NCBI GenBank assembly: GCA_016213015.1
Contig: JACRCE010000036.1
Span: 1 to 45,077, forward strand
Direction of reading: 5' to 3'
DNA: 45,077 bases
Source of the DNA: Deltaproteobacteria bacterium
GTDB taxonomy: Bacteria > Desulfobacterota > GWC2-55-46
Shown: positions 36,922-45,077 of the stretch, one piece after another
Layout: each line of letters opens with the position of its first letter
How positions within the stretch are numbered: position 1 is the first letter of the stretch
Notes under the pieces: model-generated
The model's database searches: none
Seen by the model: only the letters and a program-made list of their open reading frames with translations
Told to the model about the DNA's origin: nothing
Position numbers and translations under genes: made by a program

Positions 36922-37066
36922 TAGGGAAGGTCTGATTAATTCTTATTTTGTCATTGCGAGCCGCGCTTTCGCGGCGCGGCAATCTCTAAGTTGTTGATTT
37001 CCTTGAAGACGAGATTGCTTCGCGGAGCGAGAATGACGGGTCGGCGAATTAATCAGAGGTTCCTTA
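36922..37066. mobile_element. MITE-like element M1, copy c
   Basis: A 145-base element. The left end is TAGGGAAGGTCTGATTAATT plus C, and the right end is GAATTAATCAGAGGTTCCTT plus A. The interior includes TCATTGCGAG, a GC hairpin (CCGCGCTTTCGCGG), then GACGAGATTGCTTCG and GAATGACGGGTCGGC. Read on the minus strand it is collinear with copy d, except for the central hairpin. Confidence 0.85.
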
Positions 37067-37090
37067 GATAGTTTTTTCGAGTTCAAGCCT

Positions 37091-37156
37091 CAGCACCACT
37101 TTGTTGCACGAAGAGACTTGGGAAACAACATCCTTTCATAATCCAAAGTGGTGCTG
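37091..37156. mobile_element. Palindromic element PE2, copy A
   Basis: A 66-base element. The ends CAGCACCACTTTG (37091-37103) and CAAAGTGGTGCTG (37144-37156) are perfect 13-bp inverted repeats. The interior is TTGCACGAAGAGACTTGGG… and is not itself palindromic. It is nearly identical to copy B at the ends and resembles copy C internally. Read in the frame of the small ORF that follows, it gives …STTLLHEETW…FHNPKWCWA. Confidence 0.85.
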
Positions 37157-37160
37157 GGCG

Positions 37161-37346
37161 ATGGAAGCGAAAATAAAAAGCGGAGCATATATGATAATAT
37201 GTAAGCATTGGGCCAACCGCAAAAGCGCGGTTCGCCCCGGCAAGGAAGCTCACGCTCTCTTTGAAGCCCGTCTTATTGCGCCTTCGGCGCAAGCCGTCGG
37301 GCAACCGGTGTATTTTCGTCCTGACGCGGAAATCGGAAAAAAATAG
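37161..37346 (+). CDS. Small repeated ORF (RE3 copy 1), 61 residues
   Basis: From ATG 37161 the frame encodes MEAKIKSGAYMIICKHW… ending GQPVYFRPDAEIGKK. No family is recognised. Its last ~35 codons recur on the minus strand at the window's right edge, where the two copies differ mainly at third codon positions, which argues that the sequence is or was protein-coding. The frame is open upstream through PE2 copy A (TTG 37101). The hairpin TTGCGCC-TTC-GGCGCAA (37286-37302) marks where PE2 sits in the other copy. A GGAG at 37182 is inside the ORF, so no good ribosome site supports ATG 37161; it may be a fragment of a longer gene. Confidence 0.4.
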   Translation: MEAKIKSGAYMIICKHWANRKSAVRPGKEAHALFEARLIAPSAQAVGQPVYFRPDAEIGKK

Positions 37347-39071: not shown

Positions 39072-39252
39072 TAAGGAAGCTCTGATTAATTCGCCGACCC
39101 GTCATTATCGCGCAGCGTAGAATCTCGTCTTCAAGGAAATCAACCCAGCACCACTTTGTTGCACGAAGGAATTTGCCAAGGAACACGCTTTCATAATCCA
39201 AAGTGGCGCTGGGCTCGCAATGACAAAATAAGAATTAATCAGAGGTTCCCTA
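39072..39252. mobile_element. MITE-like element M1, copy d, carrying nested PE2
   Basis: A 181-base element filling most of the 351-base gap between the cytochrome and response-regulator genes. The ends are TAAGGAAGCTCTGATTAATT plus C and GAATTAATCAGAGGTTCCCT plus A (20 of 21 positions pair). It aligns with copy c in reverse: GCCGACCCGTCATT, AATCTCGTCTTCAAGGAAAT and GCTCGCAATGACAAAATAAG are shared. Where copy c has its central ~30-base hairpin, this copy has PE2. Elsewhere in the gap, AAGGCTGTTAG (39050-39060) and CTAACAGCCT (39250-39259) flank it in inverse orientation. Confidence 0.85.
39146..39211. mobile_element. Palindromic element PE2, copy B (nested in M1 copy d)
   Basis: A 66-base element. 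CAGCACCACTTTG (39146-39158) pairs with CAAAGTGGCGCTG (39199-39211), with one substitution. TTGTTGCACGAAG and TTTCATAATCCAAAGTGG are shared with copy A, with a diverged centre. In the copy A frame it reads STTLLHEGICQ…FHNPKWRWA. Confidence 0.85.
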
Positions 39253-44884: not shown

Positions 44885-44896
44885 TTTAGGTTGCCT

Positions 44897-45076
44897 CTAA
44901 AAATTGCTATTTTTCCCAATTTCTTTGTCAGGGCGAAAATACACCGGTTGTCCGTCGGCTTGCGCCCAGCACCACTTCGTGCCGAAAAAGTGTATCGTTT
45001 GACAAGTCTCGTATTGCGAAGTGGTGCTGGGCGCAATAAGACGGGCTTCAAAGAGAGCGTGAGCTTCCTTACCGGG
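44897..45076 (-). CDS. Partial small ORF in RE3 copy 2, with in-frame PE2 insertion
   Basis: Reading from the window edge, 59 codons run PGKEAHALFEARLIAPS, then 22 residues from PE2 and its edges, then AQADGQPVYFRPDKEIGKNSNF and TAG (44899-44897). Compared with copy 1, PE2 replaces a TTC in the TTGCGCC-TTC-GGCGCAA hairpin with 63 bases, a net gain of 60 bases or 20 codons, so the frame survives. A one-base difference near the end shifts the stop and adds SNF. It is followed 13 bases later by archease. The true start is outside the window. Confidence 0.4.
   Translation of the reverse strand, partial: PGKEAHALFEARLIAPSTTSQYETCQTIHFFGTKWCWAQADGQPVYFRPDKEIGKNSNF
44967..45029. mobile_element. Palindromic element PE2, copy C (nested in RE3 copy 2)
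   Basis: A 63-base element. Including flanking bases, GCGCCCAGCACCACTTCG (44962-44979) and CGAAGTGGTGCTGGGCGC (45017-45034) are perfect 18-bp inverted arms. On the minus strand the interior (ACGAGACTTGTCAAAC…) resembles copy A (ACGAAGAGACTTGGGAAAC). In the ORF frame it reads STTSQYETCQT…FGTKWCWA, akin to copy A. Confidence 0.85.
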
Positions 45077-45077
45077 G

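What the first reader, a model, noticed from the sequence alone, without database searches (positions are those of the whole stretch)
44897..45077. In-frame replacement of a hairpin triloop by PE2 in a repeated ORF
RE3 copy 1 has TTGCGCC-TTC-GGCGCAA (37286-37302). In copy 2 the TTC is exactly replaced by the 63-base PE2, keeping both hairpin arms and the reading frame (+20 codons). The precise site suggests insertion targeted to hairpin tips, as if a structured single strand was the target.
Basis: seen in the sequence. Interest (0 to 1): 0.68.

Follow-up and report, generated by a model that had tools for sequence, protein, structure and literature searches.

The report
Mobile palindrome occupying RNA and DNA hairpin tips
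A short palindromic repeat found by the hundred in one group of groundwater bacteria sits again and again at the tips of pre-existing hairpins, including those of the essential RNase P RNA and of riboswitches; the case in this window is a real example, but one old event that was copied along with its host repeat.

Summary
At 44960-45036 (minus strand) the TTC is exactly replaced by a 63-bp palindrome (PE2, 44967-45029). All filled copies of the host repeat (RE3) carry one PE2 subtype, so here the replacement is one old event that spread with RE3. The 'ORF' is not a gene: the host hairpin is a covarying structure and the frame is incidental.

The hairpin-tip idea survives better than expected. 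PE2-family elements (CAGCRCCACTT...AAGTGGYGCTG; 127 exact matches here, present in 10 of 63 genomes of the class) lie at hairpin apices far more often than re-paired flanks or background closers predict. They occupy apices P3, P12 and P19 of this genome's RNase P RNA, RNase P apices in five other genomes, the P3a tip of a TPP riboswitch (empty in two same-genus genomes), a cobalamin riboswitch loop, and both REP hairpins. The basal stem is kept, the apex replaced; no general target duplication.

No Y1/TnpA-REP enzyme correlates with PE2, and genome G043 shows no general apex preference, so targeting versus selective retention is open. Palindromic repeats in RNase P RNA were known in Rickettsia; systematic apex occupancy appears new.

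The parts
37276..37292 (+). Empty host hairpin TTGCGCC-TTC-GGCGCAA in RE3 copy 1
   Evidence: helix with compensatory changes in 4 of 7 pairs and 100% of cells paired across 10 module copies
44960..45036 (-). Filled host hairpin: arms 45030-45036 and 44960-44966 around PE2; host stem and PE2 stem form one continuous 20-bp helix
   Evidence: folds at -61.9 kcal/mol (133 nt, z -7.4)
44967..45029 (-). PE2, 63-bp subtype, CAGCACCACTTCG...CGAAGTGGTGCTG
   Evidence: this subtype was found only at the module hairpin
44889..45077 (-). RE3 copy 2 (MITE-like repeat with terminal inverted repeat GGTTGCCTCTAAAAATT), cut by the contig end
36906..37364 (+). RE3 copy 1, with a REP and a 66-bp PE2 nested in its 5' part
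37210..37308 (+). About 100-base structured module of RE3; carries the hairpin that receives PE2. RE3-like repeats of relatives lack it, and it also occurs on its own
   Evidence: (query 88-188 missing in relatives); no Rfam match
37091..37156 (+). PE2, 66-bp subtype, in RE3 5' part between GAGTTCAAGCCT and GGCGATGG (not an evident hairpin tip)
39146..39211 (+). PE2, 66-bp subtype, at the truncated tip of a REP (AAATCAACC|PE2|GGCTCGCAATGAC)
36924..37067 (+). REP with empty tip (TGTCATTGCGAGCCGCGCTTTCGCGGCGCGGCAATCTC), the empty counterpart of REP::PE2

Best explanation
PE2 is a small non-autonomous palindromic mobile element (62-67 bp, ends CAGCRCCACTT / AAGTGGYGCTG) that has become embedded at the tips of existing hairpins. 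At such sites the basal host stem, ending in YC|GR, is kept; the loop with some apical pairs is lost; and PE2's own stem continues the host stem. This is shown for REPs, the RE3 module, RNase P RNA and a TPP riboswitch. At the reported site it happened once in the hairpin of a ~100-base structured module, and that copy then spread with RE3. Inferred, not shown: insertion is guided by an extruded hairpin (single strand or cruciform) and done by an enzyme encoded elsewhere that is not a Y1 transposase. Selection certainly also removes copies that break stems.
For: Clean empty/filled pairs: RE3 GCGCC-TTC-GGCGC versus GCGCC-PE2-GGCGC, standalone module TGC versus PE2; REP CC-GCGCTTTCGC-GG versus CC-PE2-GG; same-genus TPP riboswitch GAGTC-CTGATGGTTATCGG-GAGACCC versus GAGTC-PE2-GAGACCC. 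Apex enrichment: perfect complementarity of at least 5 bp in 28 of 79 relatives' sites versus 4.85 expected by re-pairing flanks, 0 of 5000 permutations reaching it; anchored stem score 3.25 versus 2.05, 0 of 2000; background closers 1.7-3.4% versus 35-41%. RNase P RNA: copies at P3, P12, P19 in this genome and in G044; P3 and P9 in G057; P12 in G010 and G003; nested PE2-in-PE2 at P3 in G043. About 0.24-0.59 expected for 8 exact-pattern copies seen. In G044 the RNase P copies come from two PE2 subfamilies that also have copies elsewhere, so they are separate events. A further copy lies in the L4 loop of a cobalamin riboswitch. The host hairpin has compensatory changes. No general target-site duplication.
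Against: G043 sites other than RNase P show no apex preference (1 of 18). More than half of G003/G004 sites have no perfect stem of 5 bp. Terminator-like T-runs are not clearly enriched at stemmed sites (9 of 28 versus 11 of 47). Conserved RNA genes tolerate insertions only at variable tips, so position within RNase P or riboswitches can reflect selection. No enzyme was identified. The RE3 5' site (37091-37156) is not at a tip.
Confidence: 0.45

Rival explanations
1. Random insertion plus selective retention: PE2 lands anywhere non-coding, and copies persist mainly where they do no harm, that is at loops of hairpins and variable helices.
For: The RNase P positions are variable helices; many G003/G004 sites and nearly all G043 sites are not at tips.
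Against: RNase P genes carry many times more copies than their share of non-coding DNA. In G057 only 4 exact-pattern copies exist in the genome, yet one is in RNase P P3 and one in the TPP riboswitch. The recent G044 subfamily has 2 of its 3 known copies in RNase P tips. Apex excess of 12-20 fold over background closers.
Confidence: 0.27
2. Apex exchange by ectopic recombination or template switching between hairpins that share a GCC/GGC foot, with no transposase; palindromes simply replace one another's tips.
For: Loss of the old apex together with gain of PE2; the module's other hairpin and the TPP tip of G056 carry unrelated palindromes at the same place; C12:6353 looks like a recombinant between two PE2-bearing sites; the three RNase P copies of this genome are closest to each other.
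Against: Conserved exact ends across many genera and new unique sites suggest true mobility; the shared foot is only 2-3 bp at many sites.
Confidence: 0.18
3. Arm creation after insertion: template switching across the long palindrome copies one flank onto the other and makes the flanks complementary, so the hairpin is a consequence of PE2, not its target.
For: Perfect arms start exactly at the PE2 junction at many unique sites; T-runs typical of terminators are not clearly enriched there.
Against: Cannot explain hosts whose stem exists without PE2: RE3 and standalone modules, REPs, RNase P, TPP and cobalamin riboswitches.
Confidence: 0.1

Closest known systems
Rickettsia palindromic elements (RPE)
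   Same: Long palindromic repeats with terminal inverted repeats inside genes; reported inside RNase P RNA (M1) and tmRNA (PMC2229807, citing Ogata et al. 2002)
   Different: 105-146 bp, known mainly for in-frame insertion into protein genes; no sequence comparison made here; systematic apex occupancy is not stated in the review read
IS elements that target REPs (ISPsy8, IS1397, ISKpn1, IS621)
   Same: ISPsy8 inserts at the symmetry axis of a REP hairpin (PMC1525189)
   Different: Full insertion sequences, ISPsy8 with a direct repeat of the target; PE2 is about 65 bp, codes for nothing, shows no general duplication and replaces the apex
REP/REPIN sequences moved by TnpA-REP (RAYT)
   Same: Short palindromes in high copy in non-coding DNA
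   Different: No GTAG/CGTC tag conserved in PE2; no Y1 transposase in this genome or in three other PE2-bearing genomes
Mitochondrial GC clusters, double-hairpin elements and repetitive hairpin-forming elements
   Same: Mobile hairpins found in non-essential parts of rRNA and other genes; Allomyces elements lack target duplications (PMC2800124, PMC4478555)
   Different: Organelles, unrelated sequence; yeast GC clusters have short direct repeats
Small dispersed repeats of cyanobacteria (Elhai et al. 2008, from memory)
   Same: Very small, structured, nested mobile repeats
   Different: 21-27 nt; no link to hairpin tips of conserved RNAs recalled

Membership tests
MITE (non-autonomous DNA transposon) | Terminal inverted repeats, short, no coding capacity, high copy number | tested here: met
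   11-12 bp perfect ends, 62-67 bp, 127 exact-pattern copies in the genome
MITE (non-autonomous DNA transposon) | Target-site duplication | tested here: not met
   No general direct repeat at junctions; one suggestive CACGT repeat around a nested copy in G043
MITE (non-autonomous DNA transposon) | Autonomous parent with the same ends | not tested
   No long element was sought systematically; single ends were seen
REP/REPIN moved by TnpA-REP | Cognate Y1 (PF01797) transposase in the genome | tested here: not met
   0 matches in own genome; none in G004, G018, G044
REP/REPIN moved by TnpA-REP | GTAG or CGTC tag at the hairpin foot | tested here: not met
   Foot is YC|GR with no conserved tag (flank counts)
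Rickettsia palindromic element-like | Palindrome inside conserved genes, protein or RNA | tested here: met
   RNase P RNA, TPP and cobalamin riboswitches
Rickettsia palindromic element-like | Sequence homology to RPE families | not tested
   RPE sequences were not compared
   Host is a covarying structured module; standalone copy C75:11506 has a stop; PE2 lengths are not multiples of 3 in general

The most novel reading that the evidence does not exclude
A bacterial mobile hairpin that moves by structure-guided replacement of hairpin apices, adding its stem to the stems of host RNAs and so remodelling essential RNAs such as RNase P and riboswitches, by an enzyme that is not a Y1 transposase and leaves no target duplication.
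Probability: 0.35. Interest if true: 0.85.

Novelty: new variant of a known kind. Interest (0 to 1): 0.64.

Why it matters
If insertion is aimed at hairpin tips, this is a target rule based on nucleic-acid shape, in an element so small that it adds only a stem. It would explain how helices of conserved RNAs grow or are swapped (RNase P P3, P12 and P19; riboswitch side loops), and would be a natural route to domain insertion in RNA. Even under selective retention, the family gives many natural empty/filled pairs in which to study how RNase P and riboswitches tolerate helix replacement.

Tried and rejected
Rfam search for the RE3 module: no family (the microRNA hits are G-rich palindromes by chance). 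Y1/TnpA-REP as cognate enzyme: absent or uncorrelated. Target-site duplications: none in general. Terminator-loop targeting: T-runs not clearly enriched, so terminators are not claimed as a class. Coding role of the RE3 ORF: not supported. Empty paralogues for other host repeats in the fetched loci: none found, as those loci were chosen for PE2. Kerfeldbacteria hit L083: single, 70 bp, probably chance; not followed. Whether some PE2 copies lie inside protein genes was not resolved, because long stop-free stretches are common at this base composition.

Full report
OBSERVATION. The window is contig C112 of a 2.27-Mb, 117-contig genome. Flanks are nearly identical, the TTC is exactly missing, and the host and PE2 stems stack into one 20-bp helix.

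WHAT RE3 IS. RE3 is a MITE-like repeat with ends GGTTGCCTCTAAAAATT. Relatives in the family and order carry the same repeat without a ~100-base block (query 88-188). In this genome that block is a structured module which also exists alone. Its PE2-receiving hairpin is paired in 100% of cells, with compensatory changes in 4 of 7 pairs over 10 copies. It matches no Rfam family. The open frame is therefore incidental; a standalone copy has a stop.

ONE EVENT OR MANY. Filled RE3 copies (C112 end, C25, C23, C54 twice, C90, C92, C29:79137, C105) share one 63-bp PE2 subtype as far as they are held. That subtype was seen nowhere except the module hairpin, including a 92%-identical copy in the standalone module at C21:26053, whose empty counterpart is C75:30007 with loop TGC. 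So this site reflects one, at most two, events copied with the host.

PE2 GENOME-WIDE. PE2-like elements with exact ends number 127 in this genome, 48 in G003, 30 in G043, 21 in G004, 19 in G010, 11 in G044, and fewer in four others; 53 of 63 genomes of the class have none. G003 and G043 correspond by shared contigs to MAGs titled Deltaproteobacteria bacterium NC_groundwater_1636 and 1635. In this genome PE2 replaces the tip of the common REP (CC-GCGCTTTCGC-GG to CC-PE2-GG, both orientations), sits at the second REP hairpin (L175), and sits in a further repeat, nearly always as GCC|PE2|GGC. One recurrent host (RE3 5' part, GAGCCT|PE2|GGCGATGG) is not at an evident tip.

STATISTICS. In relatives, flanks are complementary for 5 bp or more from the junction at 28 of 79 sites, against 4.85 when flanks are re-paired at random (0 of 5000). 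Scoring only bases beyond the nearly constant YC|GR gives 3.25 against 2.05 (0 of 2000). The -2/+2 pair switches from C-G to T-A together, so it probably belongs to the target. Background YC...GR closers in the same loci reach 5 bp in 1.7% (G003) and 3.4% (G004), PE2 sites in 35% and 41%. G043 shows no such excess.

CONSERVED RNAs. RNase P RNA of this genome (C75:49144-49688) is 545 nt instead of about 380, with PE2 copies at P3, P12 and P19; G044 has the same three tips, G057 P3 and P9, G010 and G003 P12, G043 a nested pair at P3. Helix names are read from the Rfam alignments and general knowledge of the RNA; only basal stem pairs remain below PE2. Ordinary tips are seen in G004, G013, G001 and others. 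P12/P19 and P3 of G044 derive from different PE2 subfamilies with copies elsewhere, so these are separate insertions. The number in RNase P is well above expectation from length (a rough Poisson estimate that assumes non-coding insertion and treats possibly shared descent as separate). The TPP riboswitch of G057 has PE2 at P3a where same-genus G051 and G054 have short tips, and G056 has an unrelated palindrome there. A cobalamin riboswitch of G004 has PE2 in its L4 loop.

MECHANISM. Shown: apex replacement with the basal stem kept; no general target duplication; no Y1 transposase in several PE2-bearing genomes. Inferred: hairpin-guided insertion or apex exchange. Retention by selection is the main rival; arm creation by template switching is another, valid only for unique sites. 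G043, where most of the closely similar copies are not at tips, is the strongest fact against universal targeting.

LITERATURE. RPEs in RNase P RNA and tmRNA (PMC2229807), ISPsy8 at the REP symmetry axis (PMC1525189) and mitochondrial mobile hairpins (PMC2800124, PMC4478555) are precedents. In the papers searched no description of this family or of general apex occupancy was found; the library lacks most subscription journals.

Noticed in passing
G000:C75:49144-49688 (L310): RNase P RNA of the window's genome enlarged to 545 nt by three PE2 stems at P3, P12 and P19; the three are closer to each other than to other copies.
   Followed up: yes
L023 (C29:58692), L028 (C108:39): In these RE3 copies the other hairpin of the module is replaced by an unrelated G-rich palindrome, again keeping the base of the stem.
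   Followed up: partly
L316 (G056 TPP), L299 and L303 (G054, G057 RNase P P12): Other, unrelated inverted repeats also sit at hairpin tips of a TPP riboswitch and of RNase P P12.
   Followed up: partly
L311 (G043 RNase P P3): PE2 nested within PE2, with CACGT repeated on both sides of the inner copy: the only target-duplication-like case.
   Followed up: partly
window 37210-37308 and C75, C50, C74, C99, C21: About 100-base structured module with covariation, no Rfam match, inserted in RE3 and also present alone; function unknown.
   Followed up: partly
G004 L240, L243, L249, L251, L268: PE2 copies enlarged to 92-174 bp by further repeats in their own interior.
   Followed up: no
contig ends of G000 (e.g. 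C4, C6, C7, C18, C19, C43, C49): Many contigs end at or within about 50 bases of a PE2 copy, so the repeat breaks the assembly and copy number is a lower bound.
   Followed up: no
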